64,000 nucleotides of DNA from a virus. The notes under the pieces are model-generated. The model was not told the DNA's origin, did not search any database, and saw nothing but the letters and a program-made list of their open reading frames with translations. The stretch is taken from positions 1 through 64,000 of the IMG/VR virus record IMGVR_UViG_3300009529_000001. One strand, written 5' to 3'. The position numbers and the translations under genes were made by a program. Each line of letters opens with the position of its first letter. Position 1 is the stretch's first letter. Below, in pieces: positions 2,594 through 48,847 of the stretch.

Positions 2594-5500
2594 TGCCTGA
2601 CCAAGTAATCGCTCTTACTCTAAAATTAAAAGATCGTGGGATTGCTGGCACCACTTCTAAGATGGTAAAATTGAAGGGGACTGTCAAGCAATTAGATAAA
2701 GCTTTAGCATCTGCCGCAGGATCAGGATTGAAGGGCGCTACATGGATGCGCTCTGGATATAAGAAAGCACGAGAAGAATTAAAGAATGCGGCAAAGAATG
2801 CTAAAAATTTAGAAACTGGTCTTAAAGCTGTTAATGTAGAGCTTACTAATATAGGGCGTGGAAGAGCAGGATCAACGATAGGTAAGATATTAGGAGGAAA
2901 AGATTTTGCGGCTGAACGTCGTGCAAAACTTAATGCTATAAGACGTGCTATGCGTGAAGAAGAAAGATTACGTGAACGTATGCAGCGTCAGCAAATGCAA
3001 AGGATGGCAAAACAAAGAGCAAGATTTTCAAAAATGATGATCGGTACGATTCAAACTACAGGCTTTGTAGGAATTGCTGCTGCTAGTGCATTAAAAACCT
3101 TATTTGATCCTACTAAAATTCAAGGTATATTTGGTCCTGCTCTTGGACAATTGGGTTCAGTTATTGGAAATTTGTTTGGAGAAACCATTGGTTCAATTTT
3201 AGGAGATTTAGGAAAAGCTGGTGGTGAAATTGCTGAAGCTTTATTAAATGGAATAACTGCTACTCTAAGACTTGGCGCAAGATTTTTAGGTAGTTTTTTT
3301 GAAACGTTCTTTATTGGTGTGATTGCAGCACACGGAACGATGATGGTTTCTATTCTGGTAGGCATAGTTGCAGGACTTGTAAGAGCGGTAATGGAAACTT
3401 TTACAGCTTTTGTTAAAGAAATTGTAGATTTATTTAGGTCTTTAGTCAAAGCGATTGTGGCCATTATTTCAGCATTTGTTAAGACAGTAGTAGCAATTTT
3501 TAGAGGAATAGGAAAAATAATAGTAGGAGTCTGGAAAGGAGTTTGGGCAACTCTTAAGGCTATAACAAAATTATCTGTTCAAGCTATTCTTGGTATTGTG
3601 AAAAAACTTGTAGATCAAATTGCTGTTGGTTTTAAAGAATTTGTGGCAATTCAGGTAGAAGCTGCAAAAACATTTGGCCTTGTAACAGATGTTGCAGGAC
3701 AATCGACGAGGAAGTTTGCTACTCTTGCGATGAGATTAGCAAGTGAATTTGGATTTGCAATGGGGGATATTCAAAAGACTCTATTTGATGTTACTTCGGC
3801 AGGATTTAGAACTGCTGCTAAAGGTGCAAAAATTTTAGAAAAATCTTCTATATTAGCTGTAGCTGGTGCTGCAAGTCTTTCAGGAGCTACTAAGGCTGTT
3901 GTTTCAGTTCTTAGAGCATATAGTAAAGATGCTAGTGAAGCAGATCTGGTAACAAGACAATTATTTGCAGGACAGGTATTTGCAAGAGCAACGGTTGATG
4001 AATTTGCTTCTGCATTAACAAATATTATTCCTATTGCTTCTTCTGCTGGCGTGAGTTTTGAAGATGTAACGAAAGCACTTGCAACTATTACATTGTCAGG
4101 ATTTTCTGCAAGTAGAGCCTCACGTGGATTAAGTTTGTTATTGACAGGATTGATTGCTCCTAGCGGCCAAATTCGTAAGAAGTTTGAAGGTATTGGTATG
4201 AGTTTTACAGAAATGGGGAAAAATGGGCAAATTGTTCTTAAGCCTTTGGGAGATATTATCAAACAATTGCAGAAAGTTTCCATTGCTGAGATTAGGACTG
4301 TTGCATCTCGTATTCAGTCAAGAAATGCTGTATTAGCATTAAAATCAGGTTATGAAAAATATCTTGAAATTTCACGCGATTTTGTTAAGGTAACTAAACA
4401 GCTTGATGCAGCACACAAGGGCGTAACAAAAGAATTTGATAGACAGTTTAAAATTCTTTATGGGAATATTACTGTATTACGTTCTTTACTTGTTGGGGGA
4501 TTTGCAAGAGCAATTCAGGGTCCATTTAAAGATCTTGTAGATATGATTAAAGAGATTACACAATGGTTATTAAAATCAGAAGCCGTTGAAAGATTTTTTA
4601 AGGCTTTCCAAAAATTTGCACAGCCTGTGATTGATACAATAATTGAGCCTATGAAAAAAGGACTTGATGGTATTTTAACTGTATTAAAGACTGAAGATTT
4701 TGCTAAGATTTTTGAGACAGAAACGGCGGAAAAATTTAGAGAAGCTTTATTAAAGATTGTTGAACATATTAAAAATATTCCGACCTTTTTAGTAAAGATT
4801 TTTGATACTGTATTGGATACCATTGAAATAATAAAGATTGAAGCAAAATTTATTGCGGATGTAATCTCAGGAATGTTTAAAAAATTAGCTGATCCAGAAA
4901 CTTTTGTTAAATCTTTTGATGCGTTTGCTAATGCATTTATGGATGTAATTAGTATTATAGGAAAATTTTTGTATCAAACTTTGAAAGATGTATTTCTTAT
5001 GTTGGTTGATTTTTTCAATGCTACAATTGGACCAAAAATAGTAGATTTTATAGATAAGATGGTTGATAAAGTAATTGTTGAATTGGGAACATCTTTTATA
5101 GGGAATTTACCTTTTATTGGGATGGAAGATAAAACTTTTAAGGATGCTTTGCGTAGAAAAGGTGTAAGAGAACAGGTTGGTACTCTTGAAGAAGAAATAA
5201 GAACAGGGGGTAAAGAAAAAACTAGAGAGAGATTAGAAAAAGAATTAGGAGAAACAAGAAGAGCTTTAGTAAAACTTGAAAGATCAGTCTTAAAAGGAGG
5301 CTGGAGTGGTTTACAAGCACATAAAGAACGTAAAGAACGTGAAGCTGCTATTGAAGCTGCTAAATTAAGTGTTGAAGTAGCTGAAGATCAGCTTAAAGCT
5401 TTTGCGATAGCTCTTAAAAACGTAACTGATCCTTTAGGAAGAGAGACTGCTGCTGCAAAAAGTATGATGGCAAGAATTGCTGCATTAAGAGCAACTTTTG

Positions 5501-23530: not shown

Positions 23531-23837
23531 TACTGATTCAGAATTTATTAGTGAACTTGCTAGAGAAATGAAAGTAAGTTTACCAAAAGCAAAAAGGTTC
23601 ATTAAAATATTTTCTGAATGCATTAAACGAGTGCTTGTTGTAAATGGTACATTAAATATTAGGAAACTAGGTTTATTTTATTTAAAGAAAAGAAAAAATA
23701 GTATTGCTAGAAATATAAGAACAGGCGAAGTTTTTAAGATTCCGTTGACAATGAGAATAATTTTTAAACCTGCTCTTTCTTTGAAACGTTCCGCTAATGA
23801 AAGAGTTAGAAAAATTCGTGATGAAAAACTTATTTAA
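23517..23837 (+). CDS. HU/IHF-family DNA-binding protein
   Basis: The 106-residue protein matches the HU fold: N-terminal helices (FISELAREMKVSLPKAKRFI), then the beta-arm region ARNIRTGEVFKIPLTMRIIF followed by the C-terminal KPALSLKRS helix. Those are the usual DNA-bending arm and closing helix. It bends or packages DNA in replication and recombination. It overlaps the preceding gene by 14 bases and the polymerase gene by 17. Confidence 0.85.
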   Translation: MALYNTDSEFISELAREMKVSLPKAKRFIKIFSECIKRVLVVNGTLNIRKLGLFYLKKRKNSIARNIRTGEVFKIPLTMRIIFKPALSLKRSANERVRKIRDEKLI

Positions 23838-26418
23838 TAATCTTCACGCACATAGTCACTATAGTATAGGAGATGCTACTCTTCACATTGATAAATATAT
23901 AGAAAAATGTAAAAAATTAGGAAGTAATGCTGTAGCTTTGACAGAGCATGGAAATTTAGCTTCTGCGTATGAATTACACAAAGAATGTAAAAAAAGAGAA
24001 ATAAAACCTATTCTTGGTATAGAAGTATATATGGTAGATAAATATGGTACAGAAGCTGCTGAAACTCCTTATAGTTATTATCATGTTGTTTTACTTTGTA
24101 AAAATGAAACAGGTTGGAAGAATCTAAAGAAACTTCACAGCGCATCGTGGCAACACGGTTACTTACGTCGGCCTAGAATAAGTCAGGGAACGCTACAGTC
24201 GTTCTCGGACGGCTTAATAGTGCTTACTGCATGTTTGGGCGGGGTTGTAGGCAAACTATTGTTAGGGATCGATCCTTACTACAAAGAATTATCTACAAAG
24301 AAGTGTTTAAAAGTATTAAAAAAAAGATTGAAATTTTTTATAAATACATTTGGAGATGATTTTTATTATGAAATGCAATTAAATGATCTTGATGGACAAA
24401 ATATTGTCAATAAATATATTTTGGGACAAAAAGGAAAGAAAGTAATAACGAATGATATACATTATCTTAGGAAGATGGACTGGGAAATACATGACATTGT
24501 TAGATGCCGTGCGTGGAGGAAAACTCTTAAAGATGAGAATAATGGTATTTACCCGACACATCAATTGTATGTTAAGGGAATTAAATCTCTCCGAAGAGCG
24601 AAAGAAAAATGGCATGATTATATATCGGACAAAGAATTTTTAAAAGCTATGAAAGCGACTGAAGAAATAGCAGAAAAAGTTGAAGAATATCCTTTAGTTC
24701 CTAAGAAAAGCACACTTCCAAAATACGGTAAGGGTGACAGCATGGAAACCCTTACTAAACTTTGCAAAAAGGGATATAAAAAAAGGTTGACCGTTGACCA
24801 ACAAAAATCTATTGTTTATAAAAAAAGATTGAAACGTGAATTAAAAGTTATTAAGAAGATTGGGTTTCCTGATTATTTTTTGTTTGTATGGAATGTAGTT
24901 AGAAAATGTAAGAAAAAAAATATAATAGTTGGACCTGGACGTGGATCAGTTTGTGGAAGTTTGGCGGCTTATCTTCTGAATATTACACAAATAGATCCTA
25001 TTAGATTTAATTTAATGTTTGAAAGATTTTTGAATGAAGACAGACTTTCTATGCCTGATATTGATATGGATTTTAGTAAGGCTAGACGTGACGATGTTAA
25101 GAAGATTATGGAACAAATGTATGGGGCAGATAAATTAGCTCACATAGCTGCATATGCAAAGTGGAAACCAAGGGGAGTTATAACAGATGTAGGACGAGTA
25201 TTGGGATATGATTATTTTAGTGTGCTTAAGAAACAAACCAAGTTGGTAGATAGTAAAGTAGAAAAATGGAAAGAATTACCTGATGAAATAAAACCTTTTT
25301 TGAAAAAGAATAAAACTTTAACGGATAGAGCTAAACGATTAATGGAAACTGTAAATCAACAAGGAGTTCATGCAAGTGGAATTATTGTAACACCATCTGA
25401 GTTAGAAGAATGGTTGCCTACTGCCTATACTGTTGATAAAAATGATGAAGAAAGACGAAGAGTAAAGGTATCAGAATGGGACATGTATGCTTTGGAAGAT
25501 TTGGATCTATTAAAATTTGATAGATTAGGGTTGACAACTCTTGATGTTATCCAACGGACTGTAGAATTAGTTAATAGAGATGGAGAGAAAATAAAAGATA
25601 TTGATGAAGTCTGTTTGAATGATTTAGAAAATAAAAAAGTGTATGAACTTATTAGAACTCAGGAGTTACAAGGATTATTTCAGATAGAGACTTCGCAGGG
25701 AATGGCAAGACTTATAAGCGACATGAAACCGAAGCGATTCAATGATATTGTGTTGATTATTAGTTTATTTAGAACTGCTGTGTTGAAAGCAGGGATGCAT
25801 ACGGAATACGTAAAACGGAGAAATTGGGTTAAGAAAAAAGAAGAGTTTAAAATTAAAATGATTCATCCTATGTTAAAGGATATATTGAAGGAAACATATG
25901 GTGTATTAATATTTCAAGAACAAGTGATGGCAATTGCAAATAAAATGGGAAATATGACGTTACGAGAAGCTGATAATTTTAGAAAAGCTATTAAGTTGAA
26001 AGATTCTGAAAAATTTGGTGTATGGAAAGAAAAGTTCTTAGAAGGTGCAAAGAAGAATAATGTAAAGGATAAAATAGCCAAAAAGGTTTGGGATTGGATG
26101 TATAAGTTTTCGGGCTACGGATTCAATGTGTGTTTAGCTCCCGACAATACTGTGTTAAAGGATTCTGGTGAGTATATGTTATTATCAGAAGTTAAAATAG
26201 GTGATAGAATTAAGGCATATAATGTTGATTCTGATTCTTTCTATTATGATGAAGTTATAGATGTAATAGATCAAGGAAAACAAGAAGTTTATGAAGTACA
26301 ATTGAATAATGGGAGTACAATTAAATGTACTATGGACCATAGGTTTTTATGTAAAGATAAACTGAAGCATCCGTTATGGGAAATTTTGAAAAAGAAACTA
26401 GACATTATTTGTGAATGA
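23821..26418 (+). CDS. dnaE: DNA polymerase III alpha subunit, N-terminal part fused to split-intein N-half
   Basis: The ATG at 23821 puts the PHP motif HAHSH at residues 9-13, the normal distance for DnaE; an ATG at 23797 would add 8 residues. PHP residues are followed by RPRIS and ACLGG segments, GPGRGS near residue 372, and the catalytic PDIDMDF near 411. Polymerase sequence continues to GYGFNV at residue 770. An intein then starts at Cys (26131) and runs 95 residues to the stop. The chain therefore ends inside the intein and must be joined to the next gene product by trans-splicing to give an active enzyme. A GC-richer patch covers 24121-24300. Confidence 0.85.
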   Translation: MKNLFNNLHAHSHYSIGDATLHIDKYIEKCKKLGSNAVALTEHGNLASAYELHKECKKREIKPILGIEVYMVDKYGTEAAETPYSYYHVVLLCKNETGWKNLKKLHSASWQHGYLRRPRISQGTLQSFSDGLIVLTACLGGVVGKLLLGIDPYYKELSTKKCLKVLKKRLKFFINTFGDDFYYEMQLNDLDGQNIVNKYILGQKGKKVITNDIHYLRKMDWEIHDIVRCRAWRKTLKDENNGIYPTHQLYVKGIKSLRRAKEKWHDYISDKEFLKAMKATEEIAEKVEEYPLVPKKSTLPKYGKGDSMETLTKLCKKGYKKRLTVDQQKSIVYKKRLKRELKVIKKIGFPDYFLFVWNVVRKCKKKNIIVGPGRGSVCGSLAAYLLNITQIDPIRFNLMFERFLNEDRLSMPDIDMDFSKARRDDVKKIMEQMYGADKLAHIAAYAKWKPRGVITDVGRVLGYDYFSVLKKQTKLVDSKVEKWKELPDEIKPFLKKNKTLTDRAKRLMETVNQQGVHASGIIVTPSELEEWLPTAYTVDKNDEERRRVKVSEWDMYALEDLDLLKFDRLGLTTLDVIQRTVELVNRDGEKIKDIDEVCLNDLENKKVYELIRTQELQGLFQIETSQGMARLISDMKPKRFNDIVLIISLFRTAVLKAGMHTEYVKRRNWVKKKEEFKIKMIHPMLKDILKETYGVLIFQEQVMAIANKMGNMTLREADNFRKAIKLKDSEKFGVWKEKFLEGAKKNNVKDKIAKKVWDWMYKFSGYGFNVCLAPDNTVLKDSGEYMLLSEVKIGDRIKAYNVDSDSFYYDEVIDVIDQGKQEVYEVQLNNGSTIKCTMDHRFLCKDKLKHPLWEILKKKLDIICE
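26131..26415 (+). mobile_element. Split DnaE intein, N-terminal half (IntN)
   Basis: The half begins CLAPDNTVLKDSGEYML directly after GYGFNV of the polymerase. It shows intein block A with Cys1, KIGDRIKAYNVDSDSF, and block B as CTMDHRFLC (the Thr-x-x-His pattern). The length of 95 residues and the order of features match cyanobacterial DnaE IntN. It stops where natural split inteins break. Confidence 0.9.
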
Positions 26419-26585
26419 TTACTTTATGGGAAGATAAAAATTTTAGATGGGAAATTTGGGAGACAGTTTTGGTTAAAACTGCAAAAATTGTTGGATTAAG
26501 AAGAATTGGTAAAGTAAAATGTTTGGATTTGAAAATGAAATCCAAGCATCACAATTTTATATGCGAAGGATTAGTAACTTCTAAT
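26415..26585 (+). mobile_element. Split DnaE intein, C-terminal half (IntC)
   Basis: The 57-residue half contains KTAKIVGLRRIGKVKCLDL, then HHNFICEGLVTSN, matching intein blocks F and G with terminal Asn and a Ser as first C-extein residue. The usual penultimate His is Ser, as in cyanobacterial DnaE inteins. It is about 20 residues longer at its N-terminus than the typical 36-residue IntC. No endonuclease lies between the halves. Confidence 0.9.
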
Positions 26586-27584
26586 TCCCATGCCGTATCT
26601 TATGCATTTATTTGTTATCAAACAGCTTGGCTCAAATGTTTTTATCGACAAGAATTCATGTCATGTGTAATGTCCGAATGTCAAAAGGGAGATAAGGCAA
26701 AAATTAAACTTCCTAAATGTATCCATGAATGTAAAAAATATTTTGAAATAGAAACACCCGATGTAAATTATTCCACAGATAGATTTGAACTTCTTGACAA
26801 GAAGATAATATTTCCTTTTACTACAATTAAAGGAGTAGGAGATAAAGCTGTTGATATAATTTTATTTGAAAGAAAAAAGAAATTTAAATCGTTTGAAAAT
26901 TTTTTTGAAAGAATCAATAAACGAGTGGTGAATGTAGGAATTTTAAGTAATATTATTTTAGCTGACGCATTTAGAAAGTTTGGAAAGAGGGAAGAGATAT
27001 TCGATCAGTTTATGGAACTTCGTGGTAAAGATAAGGTAGCAAGACAATTGTACTGTAATGAATGTAATTACAGATATCCTTGTGTTGTTAAAGAAGATGA
27101 AACACCGTCTTGTCCGTCTTGCGGAAGTGCAAGTGTAACTATAGATATTGATGATTGTCAGGGACAAAAATTTAATCATACATTTTGTGAAAATAATTTT
27201 GTATTTGGATTTAATGTGAAAGAAAATCCGCTTAAAAAATATTTACCTTATATGTTGAAACATAATTATCTTTCTTTGGAAGATATATTAGAAGAATTAG
27301 TGGGGAATATTGTAAAGACAATTGTAATGATTAAAGAAATAAGAAAGCATGTTGATAAAAATAATAGGGAAATGGCTTTTATTAAAGTCGGTGATTTACA
27401 TGATGATGAAGCTGATCTAGTTATATTCGGAACAGATTGGGAATATTTGAAACACAAAGTACAAAAGGATGGCCACTATAAGATAAAAATAGTCAAAGAC
27501 CAGTCGAGATGGAACGAAAATATAAATAATTTGAAATTTGATGCTAGAAGGGGTTGTAGAATTAAAAAACTAAAAGTTAAGTGA
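26415..27584 (+). CDS. dnaE: DNA polymerase III alpha subunit, C-terminal part preceded by split-intein C-half
   Basis: Its ATG overlaps the previous TGA (ATGA), suggesting coupled translation. After the 57-residue intein half, the polymerase resumes with SHAVSYAFICYQTAWLK, the standard continuation of GYGFNKSH in DnaE. A helix-hairpin-helix follows (IKGVGDKAVDII), then an unusual zinc ribbon with Cys pairs at CNECNYRYPC and CPSCG (27052-27130), and an OB-like C-terminus. The C-extein is 332 residues, so the spliced enzyme would be about 1102 residues, close to normal DnaE length. Confidence 0.85.
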   Translation: MITLWEDKNFRWEIWETVLVKTAKIVGLRRIGKVKCLDLKMKSKHHNFICEGLVTSNSHAVSYAFICYQTAWLKCFYRQEFMSCVMSECQKGDKAKIKLPKCIHECKKYFEIETPDVNYSTDRFELLDKKIIFPFTTIKGVGDKAVDIILFERKKKFKSFENFFERINKRVVNVGILSNIILADAFRKFGKREEIFDQFMELRGKDKVARQLYCNECNYRYPCVVKEDETPSCPSCGSASVTIDIDDCQGQKFNHTFCENNFVFGFNVKENPLKKYLPYMLKHNYLSLEDILEELVGNIVKTIVMIKEIRKHVDKNNREMAFIKVGDLHDDEADLVIFGTDWEYLKHKVQKDGHYKIKIVKDQSRWNENINNLKFDARRGCRIKKLKVK

Positions 27585-27638: not shown

Positions 27639-28235
27639 ATGGCTAAAGATGATTGTTTAGAAGTTGCATATGGGCTGAATTTTAAGACAGGAGAAAAGGG
27701 CGTTTACAGTATTAATCTTCGGAGAATAGCAAGTGGCACAAAGAAAGGGTTTTCTAAACTAGCTGATGAAGCTGAAGAAATTTGGAAAACTCTTGAAGAA
27801 GAAGGTAAAACCATAAGTAAACCGGGCGAAAATGATAATGACGACGACGATGATGACGAGGATGATGACGAGGAAGAGAGTGAAGAAGAAAAGTCTGACG
27901 ATGAAGATGGCGATGGCGATGACGATGACGACGATGATGACGAAGATGAAGAAGATGAAGATGGCGATGACGACGATGACGACGATGATGACGAAGATGA
28001 AGAAGATGAAGATGGCGATGACGACGATGACGACGATGACGACGATGATGACGAAGATGAAGATGACGAAGAGGACGAAGAAAAGAATTACGATAAAATG
28101 GATGAAGATGAATTGCGTAAGCTTTGTAAAGAGAAGAAGATTAAAAAGACTCCAAATGGTAAGACCATTAAGAAAGCTAAAAAGGGTCAGTTGATTGCTG
28201 CATTAGAGGAAAAGGATGAAAAAGACGAAGATTAA
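27639..28235 (+). CDS. Acidic low-complexity protein with C-terminal SAP/HeH-like domain
   Basis: Residues 1-60 form a small ordered domain, residues about 65-150 are almost only Asp, Glu and Gly, and residues about 152-190 (MDEDELRKLCKEKKIKK and following KAKKGQLIAALEE) look like a SAP or HeH helix-extension-helix DNA-binding motif. The DNA of the acidic part is a tandem repeat with a 51-bp unit. AAGGAGG precedes the ATG. Position before the recombination proteins suggests DNA binding or a histone-like or DNA-mimic role, but this is inference. Confidence 0.5.
   Translation: MAKDDCLEVAYGLNFKTGEKGVYSINLRRIASGTKKGFSKLADEAEEIWKTLEEEGKTISKPGENDNDDDDDDEDDDEEESEEEKSDDEDGDGDDDDDDDDEDEEDEDGDDDDDDDDDEDEEDEDGDDDDDDDDDDDDEDEDDEEDEEKNYDKMDEDELRKLCKEKKIKKTPNGKTIKKAKKGQLIAALEEKDEKDED
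27898..28072 (+). repeat. 51-bp tandem repeat coding for acidic residues
   Basis: The unit starting GATGGCGATGACGACGATGA begins at 27960 and again at 28011; imperfect copies flank these. Each full unit codes for 17 residues, nearly all Asp or Glu. Such repeats change copy number easily, so the length of the acidic stretch may vary between isolates. Confidence 0.8.
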
Positions 28236-46268: not shown

Positions 46269-46584
46269 AACAAAGACAAGATTAATTAATACTCTTGGAA
46301 GAGTTTATTACGCTTTTTATTTGAAAGGTGGTAGAAAAAATCCTAAAAGAAAAGATATAGAAGAAAATATATATAAAACAAAATATCCTGATTCTTTGAA
46401 ATCATATCAAAAACTTTTTTCTCGATTATTTATACATATTAATGAAAAATTGACACAAAAATCTTATAAGAAAATAATAAAAATATTAAAAGAAGAAGAT
46501 AAATTAACCGAGAAAAAAAGGCGCGGTTATATTAAGTGCTGGCGTTTAATGGAGAAATATTATGGAGGTTATTCAAGCGAATAG
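46261..46584 (+). CDS. Unknown basic helical protein
   Basis: The 107-residue protein is Lys/Arg/Tyr-rich and mostly helical with no recognised motif. It starts within the end of the epimerase gene and overlaps the thymidylate synthase start by 23 bases. Its place directly before nucleotide-metabolism genes gives no clear hint. Confidence 0.4.
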   Translation: MFKTKTRLINTLGRVYYAFYLKGGRKNPKRKDIEENIYKTKYPDSLKSYQKLFSRLFIHINEKLTQKSYKKIIKILKEEDKLTEKKRRGYIKCWRLMEKYYGGYSSE

Positions 46585-48847
46585 TATTAATGATGGATTA
46601 GCAAAAGTTCTTGAAGGTATAGTAGGTAGAGGGAATAAAGTTGATATAAAAGGTAAAGAAACTCTAGAACTTCATCCTTGTTTAATAGAATTTGATAAAC
46701 CTCTTAAACGTACATTGCTTTATCCAGGAAGGGGTAATAATCCTTTCGCTAGTCTTGCTGAAACTTTATGGATTTTAGCAGGACGAAATGACGTTGATTG
46801 GCTAAAATTCTTTTTGCCAAGAGCGCCTGATTGGAGCGATGATGGTGAAGTTTGGAGAGCAGGTTATGGACCTCGATTGAGGCAATGGAAAGCAGAGGGT
46901 GAATGTTCTAGTGAATGGACGTTCATTGATCAAATTAAATATGTCTACGATACACTTAAAAATGATCTAATGAGCAGACAAGCAATAATATCTTTATGGG
47001 ATCCTGGTGAAGAATGTACTGTGGGAAAAACATTAGATTGTCCTTGTTCCAATTGGCTACATTTTATGGTAAGGAGAAAATATAGGCCAGAATTAGCAGA
47101 TATAAAAGACAAACCTGAAACTTGGACTTTCCATCTAGATTGTGAATTTGTGATCAGATCAAATGATGCAATTTGGGGATTCTGTCTTTCCGGTGCTACT
47201 AAAATAAAATTATTGGATGGAACTGTTAAACCTATAAAAGATCTTGTTGATAAACAGTTTTGGGTTTATTCAAAAAATAATGATAAAGAAATAGTACCCG
47301 GAAAAGTTATAAAATGTAAAAAAACAGGAAAGAAAAAAATATTAAAAATAACTTTTAGTGATGGAAGCTTCGTAAGATGTTCTAAAAACCATAAGTTTTT
47401 ATTAAGAGATTGGAAATATAGAAAAGCAAAAAATCTAAAAGTAGGTGATTCAATTGATAGTGTATATTTTAGATTGAATAAAAAAGGTTATGAACAATAT
47501 AACAACGGTGATGGCTGGTTTAATACGCATATAATGGCAAATATTCTGTCGGAAAAGGGAGAATTAGATAGTAATAATAATTTTCATATAACTCACCATA
47601 AAGATTTTGTTAAACGAAATAATAATCCTGAAAATCTTTTATGGCTGGGGAATTATGATCATCATAGTTTTCATGCTGAATTATTGCGTAAAATGTGGCG
47701 GGATCCTAAATATAGAAAATCAAGAAAGAAAGTTATAAAAAAACTTTTAGCTTTTAATAGAAAACAATGGAAAAATCCTGAATATAGAAGAGAAAGACGT
47801 AAAATCTTAAGTGAAAGAATGATCCAATGGTGGGAAGAAGAAAGATTTGATACTGAATTACATAAAGAAGCTGCTAAAAATAATTTAATCAATTACAATA
47901 AATCTTTTAAAGGGCGTAATAAATCTAGAGAGATTGGACAAACATTTGGAACAGATAATTTTAAGAAATATCACAAAACGGGCGGACATTTAAAAACTTT
48001 AGCAAAAATTCATAGAGAAAAATTAAACAATACTCCAAAAATTAAATTTAAACGCACTAGAACTAGAATCCTTAATGTTTTTAATGAATTGAAAAAAAGA
48101 TTCTTAGAATTTAATGAAGAAAATTATTTTAATTATAAACCAATGGGTAATCCTGGATGGAAAAAAGTTTTTGAATATTTTAAAGATTTGGATGAAATAA
48201 ATGAATGCTTAGAAAATTATAATCACATAGTTACTTCTATAAAATCTGACGGTTATGAAGATACTTATGATTTGGAAGTAGAAGATTATCACAATTTTGT
48301 ATTGGAAAATGGTGTTATCGTTCACAATTCTAATATTAATTTTTATGAATGGAGTGTATTACAAGAAATATTAGCAAGTGTATTAGGTATAGAAATTGGG
48401 ACATTTTATTATTATGTATCAAGTATACATGTTTACAAACATCATTGGAAACGTGTTAAAAAATTATTGGAAAATAAAGAAAAATTTGTAGACAATCTTC
48501 CTGAATTTAGATTTTGTAGAGGGCAAATTAATCTTGATAAATATTTGGAAGACTGTGAAATGTTATGTAAATATGTAGAAGAAATAATAATAAATGATAA
48601 GAAAAAACTTAAATATTTTATACCTTTTCATGGGGAGAGAGGATCTACTTTAAACGATATTGCTTGTTTATTGTCAGTTTTTGTAAAAATGAAACAAAAC
48701 GATAATGCTTGGAGAAAAACTTTGCATTGTATTCCATTTTCTGATTTAAAAGTATCTTGTTATTACTATGCAATGAAAAATATTTTTAAATACAAAGATT
48801 ATACAATTCAAGAAGCAATAGAAAAGGTGCAAAAAAATGAGTATTAA
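46562..48847 (+). CDS. Thymidylate synthase family protein with an inserted intein
   Basis: The exteins match ThyA: LAETLWILAGRNDVDWL, then GYGPRLRQW, the active-site Cys in LDCPCSNWLHF near residue 160, RSNDAIWGF and, after the intein, SNINFYEWSVLQEILAS and SIHVYKHHW. Extein length is about 379 residues. The intein (382 residues) interrupts the conserved RSND...N active-site region. Removal by protein splicing is needed for activity. The enzyme makes dTMP or a hydroxymethyl pyrimidine; the sequence alone does not decide. The RNR gene follows with overlap. Confidence 0.8.
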   Translation: MEVIQANSINDGLAKVLEGIVGRGNKVDIKGKETLELHPCLIEFDKPLKRTLLYPGRGNNPFASLAETLWILAGRNDVDWLKFFLPRAPDWSDDGEVWRAGYGPRLRQWKAEGECSSEWTFIDQIKYVYDTLKNDLMSRQAIISLWDPGEECTVGKTLDCPCSNWLHFMVRRKYRPELADIKDKPETWTFHLDCEFVIRSNDAIWGFCLSGATKIKLLDGTVKPIKDLVDKQFWVYSKNNDKEIVPGKVIKCKKTGKKKILKITFSDGSFVRCSKNHKFLLRDWKYRKAKNLKVGDSIDSVYFRLNKKGYEQYNNGDGWFNTHIMANILSEKGELDSNNNFHITHHKDFVKRNNNPENLLWLGNYDHHSFHAELLRKMWRDPKYRKSRKKVIKKLLAFNRKQWKNPEYRRERRKILSERMIQWWEEERFDTELHKEAAKNNLINYNKSFKGRNKSREIGQTFGTDNFKKYHKTGGHLKTLAKIHREKLNNTPKIKFKRTRTRILNVFNELKKRFLEFNEENYFNYKPMGNPGWKKVFEYFKDLDEINECLENYNHIVTSIKSDGYEDTYDLEVEDYHNFVLENGVIVHNSNINFYEWSVLQEILASVLGIEIGTFYYYVSSIHVYKHHWKRVKKLLENKEKFVDNLPEFRFCRGQINLDKYLEDCEMLCKYVEEIIINDKKKLKYFIPFHGERGSTLNDIACLLSVFVKMKQNDNAWRKTLHCIPFSDLKVSCYYYAMKNIFKYKDYTIQEAIEKVQKNEY
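47183..48328 (+). mobile_element. Intein with HNH homing endonuclease domain
   Basis: The intein runs from Cys1 (CLSGATKIKLLDGTVKPI) through block B (CSKNHKFLLRDW) and an HNH endonuclease with ITHHKDFVKRNNNPENLLWL and HHSFH, then helix-rich repeats of the WKNPEYRRE type, to block F/G YHNFVLENGVIVHN, followed by extein Ser. It is 382 residues long. All splicing residues are present, and the HNH motif looks intact, so the element may be active in homing. Confidence 0.9.

What the first reader, a model, noticed from the sequence alone, without database searches (positions are those of the whole stretch)
26131..26585. DnaE split intein with halves in adjacent ATGA-overlapping genes
The polymerase is broken at GYGFNV|SHAV by IntN (95 residues) and IntC (57). 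The stop of the first frame and the ATG of the second overlap. The second frame also has a TGA just before this ATG, so neither read-through nor an upstream frameshift would fuse them. Cyanobacterial DnaE inteins sit four residues earlier and their halves are far apart. This may be a newly split or cis-coupled split intein; the longer IntC is unusual.
Basis: partly seen in the sequence, partly recalled or inferred. Interest (0 to 1): 0.85.

Follow-up and report, generated by a model that had tools for sequence, protein, structure and literature searches.

The report
Phage polymerase split by endonuclease-less intein
A phage DNA polymerase is made as two proteins from two abutting genes, each carrying half of a self-splicing intein; relatives have a homing-endonuclease gene between the halves, and here that gene seems to have been lost while the split stayed, which shows one way endonuclease-free split inteins can arise.

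Summary
DnaE is broken at GYGFNV|SHAV by a 95-residue IntN and an IntC, the ORFs overlap by ATGA, and no plausible frameshift fuses them. A second viral record carries the same junction.

"Newly split" is not supported. I collected 53 distinct phage inteins at this DnaE site or within a few residues of it: 38 split, 15 contiguous. Most split ones carry a homing-endonuclease (HEN) gene between the halves, the "fractured gene" arrangement. A tree puts the window inside the split, HEN-bearing group; grouping it with contiguous inteins is rejected (AU p=0.0013).

The window is best read as a fractured gene that lost its HEN. Relatives show decay stages, and the 57-nt spacer resembles a frameshifted 3' end of one HEN subclass (p about 0.001-0.003, subclass chosen afterwards).

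The "long IntC" is probably a start-codon effect: TTG 26469, six bases after GGGAG, lines up with other IntC starts and gives a normal 39-residue IntC. Overlaps of 1 or 4 bases are routine in this phage.

Verdict: a probably functional, HEN-less split intein in abutting genes, a new variant of a known kind. Trans-splicing itself is untested.

The parts
23797..26418 (+). DnaE-N gene: N-extein (PHP, polymerase, finger domains; 23797-26130) plus IntN plus TGA stop
   Evidence: PF02811, PF07733, PF17657, PF14890
26131..26415 (+). IntN, 95 aa, Cys1; block B TMDH; ends LDIICE at the usual HEN-insertion point
   Evidence: nearest solved structures are cyanobacterial DnaE split inteins
26415..26418 (+). 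ATGA overlap: stop of DnaE-N and first ATG of the DnaE-C frame; no Shine-Dalgarno match at this ATG
26415..26471 (+). Spacer: candidate scar of a deleted homing endonuclease (frame 0 ITLWEDK, then frame 1 ILDGKFGRQF, one 1-nt shift)
   Evidence: resembles 3' ends of class-II HEN genes in register with the IntC start
26458..26462 (+). GGGAG, Shine-Dalgarno-like, 6 nt before TTG 26469
26469..26585 (+). IntC by the better-supported TTG start (39 aa); block F HHNF; ends TSN
   Evidence: TTG aligns with the start codons of most other split IntCs at this site
26415..26585 (+). IntC as the longest ORF (57 aa) if the ATG is used
26586..27584 (+). C-extein of DnaE (Ser+1, HHH motif, C-terminal part) and stop

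Best explanation
This is a naturally split class-1 intein in a phage DnaE. The two abutting genes are probably co-transcribed and translated as two proteins. IntN and IntC associate and splice the halves in trans at GYGFNV|SHAV, giving one DnaE. It descends from a 'fractured gene' in which a free-standing homing endonuclease lay between the halves; that gene was deleted, leaving a spacer of under 60 nt, and the split was kept. IntC is most likely started at TTG 26469 rather than ATG 26415. Shown: anatomy, catalytic residues, no joinable frame, placement among split HEN-bearing relatives. Inferred: HEN loss, start codon, co-transcription, splicing.
For: Conserved splicing residues (Cys1, TxxH, block F His, Asn, Ser+1) and relatives with the same split point. 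38 of 53 distinct phage DnaE inteins at or near this site are split, most with HEN genes of Vsr-like, LAGLIDADG or other type between the halves. Tree: window is sister to 31 rows that are nearly all split with HEN (98/94 for those 31; 91/91 with the window); grouping with contiguous rows rejected, AU p 0.0013. Other HEN-less or HEN-decayed cases: L100 and L169 (spacer 31 nt), L174 (196 nt, remnant IIRFWESDIINN), L213 (636 nt, degraded LAGLIDADG), L218 (remnant LELWEKEINN). Spacer resembles class-II HEN 3' ends in register, p 0.0008-0.0033. TTG aligns with other IntC starts and has GGAG at spacing 6. Net charges of opposite sign, IntN -5 and IntC +6, as expected for capture between split fragments (model described in PMC11766414).
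Against: No splicing or expression data. The HEN-scar match is short, weaker than in L174 or L218, and the HEN subclass was picked after seeing several. The charge split is weak on the IntN side (-5; other split mean -9.5, contiguous -1.9). The window's branch is long (0.97) and the nearest identity only 41%. The window intein lacks close relatives apart from one near-identical contig.
Confidence: 0.72

Rival explanations
1. A contiguous mini-intein recently broken by an indel in its linker; MITLWEDKNFRWEIWET is the old linker and the halves still associate.
For: A single-base change near 26412-26418 would give one open frame of about 152 aa, a plausible mini-intein size. Contiguous minis exist at the same site, some very close to split ones (L155 next to L188; L103).
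Against: Tree placement inside split HEN-bearing inteins; AU test rejects grouping with contiguous ones. The spacer has a Shine-Dalgarno-like site and start at the position used by other split IntCs. Contiguous relatives of the split clade such as L155 and L103 have almost no linker.
Confidence: 0.15
2. A sequencing or assembly error: the gene is really one contiguous DnaE with a cis-splicing intein.
For: Only one base would be needed; the only other copy is a near-identical contig that may share samples.
Against: Two records with 1 mismatch in 14 kb agree on the junction; no homopolymer there; split inteins are the rule in this clade.
Confidence: 0.05
3. A decaying, non-splicing relic: the DnaE halves work unspliced as a two-subunit enzyme, or the polymerase is dead.
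For: No activity data; HEN lost.
Against: All splicing residues and both DnaE halves are intact, in a replication gene cluster with DnaB-like helicase and RecA/UvsX-like genes.
Confidence: 0.08

Closest known systems
Fractured genes (Dassa et al. 2009, NAR 37:2560; paper not held here, content from memory and citing papers)
   Same: Conserved phage replication enzyme broken by a split intein at the canonical point; two neighbouring genes; relatives at the same site carry Vsr-like HEN genes between the halves.
   Different: No endonuclease gene between the halves; spacer under 60 nt and reading frames touching.
Cyanobacterial split DnaE inteins (Npu, Ssp)
   Same: Same host protein, same IntN/IntC break point in the intein; best solved-structure matches (E 7e-11); no HEN.
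   Different: Inserted four residues earlier; the two genes lie far apart in cyanobacteria (general knowledge).
Contiguous phage DnaE inteins at the same site (L155, L103, L160, L044, L045 and others)
   Same: Same insertion site; L155 and L103 nest among split ones.
   Different: One open frame; cis-splicing expected.
Aeromonas phage Aeh1 nrdA split by mobE (as cited in PMC3653736)
   Same: Phage enzyme gene cut in two by an endonuclease-gene insertion.
   Different: In Aeh1 the two genes are separated by the endonuclease gene; here an intein pair is present and no endonuclease gene remains.

Membership tests
Class 1 intein (HINT domain) | Nucleophile at position 1, TxxH in block B, His in block F, terminal Asn, Cys/Ser/Thr +1 | tested here: met
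   C26131; TMDH; HHNF; TSN|S; PF14890 and TIGR01445 above cut-offs
Naturally split intein | Two ORFs, each with one intein half and one extein, no joinable frame | tested here: met
Naturally split intein | Trans-splicing activity | not testable with these tools
   needs co-expression
Fractured gene | Conserved enzyme gene broken by a split intein in neighbouring genes | tested here: met
Fractured gene | Free-standing endonuclease gene between the halves | tested here: not met
   Only 57 nt between IntN end and IntC core; a possible HEN scar there
Cyanobacterial split DnaE intein | Insertion between Y and C/G of GY|xFNKSH | tested here: not met
   Window site is GYGFNV|SHAV
Cyanobacterial split DnaE intein | Sequence kinship of IntN | tested here: met
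   Best PDB hits are cyanobacterial-type DnaE inteins, E 7e-11 to 1e-7; a shared origin at this level is not proven
Cis-splicing mini-intein | One open reading frame | tested here: not met

The most novel reading that the evidence does not exclude
After HEN loss, fractured DnaE genes reach a stable HEN-free split state (window, L100, L169, L218) or are re-fused into contiguous inteins (L155, L103). The split is thus kept without the parasite that caused it, and this is the route by which HEN-free split inteins such as the cyanobacterial DnaE pair arose.
Probability: 0.4. Interest if true: 0.72.

Novelty: new variant of a known kind. Interest (0 to 1): 0.55.

Why it matters
Split inteins are major tools, and where HEN-free natural ones come from is not settled. 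The usual homing-cycle model (PMC8966425) describes HEN degeneration and loss in contiguous inteins. Here one insertion site in one protein shows intact fractured genes, decayed HENs, HEN-less splits and probable re-fusions side by side, so the order of events becomes testable. The window also supplies a compact new DnaE split pair with a Ser+1 site for splicing tests.

Tried and rejected
Recoding to fuse the frames: the second frame is closed by TGA 26412-26414 and the first by TGA 26416-26418, with no slippery run between, so -1 slippage and transcript slippage are not credible. Tandem duplication as the source of the extension: only short repeats such as ATGGGAAATTT, not pursued. HEN scar of class I (RFWESDI) in the spacer: not significant with DNA alignment, p about 0.24 by shuffles and 0.12 against genome segments. 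A first amino-acid profile test cut the motif and was uninformative; a shorter block gave about p 0.003-0.09 depending on columns. LAGLIDADG remnant in frame 1: considered, replaced by the class-II reading. RNA motif at the junction: no Rfam match; a hairpin over the GGGAG site has z about -2, left open. First bacterial genome scan with IntN found nothing; the second with IntC gave three contigs.

Full report
1. Observation. The window is part of a 109,578-base virus record. DnaE is encoded by two ORFs, 23797-26418 and 26415-27584, on the + strand. The first carries PHP, polymerase and finger domains followed by an intein N-terminal half; the second carries an intein C-terminal half and the rest of DnaE. 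The junction reads GAATGATTAC, so the TGA stop and an ATG overlap, and TGA also closes the second frame at 26412-26414. A second viral record has the same junction, with one mismatch in 14.3 kb; it may not be an independent sample.

2. Intein features. IntN has Cys1 and TMDH, IntC has HHNF and ends TSN before Ser+1. The nearest solved structures to IntN are DnaE inteins of the Npu/Ssp type. IntN ends at the usual endonuclease-insertion point, as in the relatives.

3. Relatives. Scans of viral contigs and a profile classification gave 53 distinct inteins at this DnaE site or within a few residues of it: 38 split and 15 contiguous. Five of them (one truncated, four with a slightly different junction) were left out of the tree. 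Most split ones have an endonuclease gene between the halves: Vsr-like with a C-terminal RFWESDI or ELWESDIN motif, LAGLIDADG, or others. This is the fractured-gene arrangement named by Dassa et al. 2009, which I could not read here; citing papers describe the EDxHD/Vsr family (PMC12350094) and the idea that endonuclease invasion of contiguous inteins made split ones (PMC11766414).

4. Place of the window. In a maximum-likelihood tree of IntN plus IntC plus short extein flanks the window is sister to 31 rows, nearly all split with HEN; that group of 31 has support 98/94 and the group with the window 91/91. The next group out includes L007, also split with HEN. Holding the window with the contiguous inteins is rejected (AU p 0.0013); holding it with the clade that has class-II HENs is not (p 0.36). 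By parsimony the ancestor was split with HEN, so the window lost the HEN. Root placement is by midpoint only.

5. Stages of HEN loss. L174 has 196 nt between the halves, including IIRFWESDIINN, a HEN C-terminus. L213 has 636 nt of degraded LAGLIDADG gene. L218, a contig in a Verrucomicrobiales MAG, has a HEN tail, LELWEKEINNKQFEEILTCKLQKL, overlapping the IntN tail. L100 and L169 have 31 nt with a short match to HEN tails. L155 and L103 are contiguous and nest among split ones; L155 is next to the split L188, so re-fusion is likely.

6. The spacer of the window. Bases 26421-26471 align with class-II HEN 3' ends in register with the IntC start: TTATGGGAA at -45 (class II: -44), then a 1-nt shift, then ILDGKFGRQF against EINDGRFREQL in L108. 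An anchored alignment beats 99.7% or more of shuffles and genome segments (p 0.0008-0.0033). The HEN subclass was chosen after others had been tried (class I p about 0.24 by shuffles, 0.12 against genome segments), so I treat this as moderate evidence.

7. Start of IntC. ATG 26415 has no Shine-Dalgarno match and would add 18 residues that the other split IntCs lack. TTG 26469 has GGAG at spacing 6, and it lies at the position where most of the others start. Typical IntC length is 35-40 aa (PMC12707363), which fits 39. Both starts may be used. In this phage 9 junctions overlap by 4 bases and 11 by 1 base, of 68, so an ATGA overlap is not evidence of something special.

8. Mechanism. The halves should meet by charge-driven capture and fold together, then splice. 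Split inteins of the set have more acidic IntN than contiguous ones (mean -9.5 against -1.9, not corrected for kinship); the window has -5 and +6. Splicing is inferred, not shown.

9. Novelty. Split inteins, fractured genes and mini-inteins are known. I found no paper in the held library on HEN loss from a fractured gene or on abutting split-intein genes, but most subscription papers are not held. I rate it a new variant of a known kind.

Noticed in passing
window 46562-48847: Thymidylate synthase gene with a second, contiguous intein that contains an HNH endonuclease.
   Followed up: no
L155 3665-4228 and L188 2772-4231: Very close DnaE inteins, one contiguous without HEN, the other split with a Vsr-like HEN: a natural before/after pair for HEN loss with re-fusion.
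   Followed up: partly
L157 and L161, around 3100-4030: IntN runs in frame into an HNH/NUMOD-like endonuclease while IntC is a separate gene, overlapping or close behind (TGATG in L157): an IntN-HEN fusion.
   Followed up: no
L012 8300-9600, L019 8250-9600, L028 8300-9350: DnaE inteins at a neighbouring site (FFG|SYGFNKSH) whose HNH-like ORF lies in a different frame overlapping the intein frame.
   Followed up: no
L081, L092 and L091: Clamp-loader-like genes with inteins, split with an endonuclease gene in L081 and L092 and contiguous in L091.
   Followed up: no
window 26441-26461: Predicted RNA hairpin covering the GGGAG before TTG 26469, z about -2; might gate IntC translation.
   Followed up: no
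window 27639-28235: Highly acidic Asp/Glu-repeat protein just downstream of DnaE-C.
   Followed up: no
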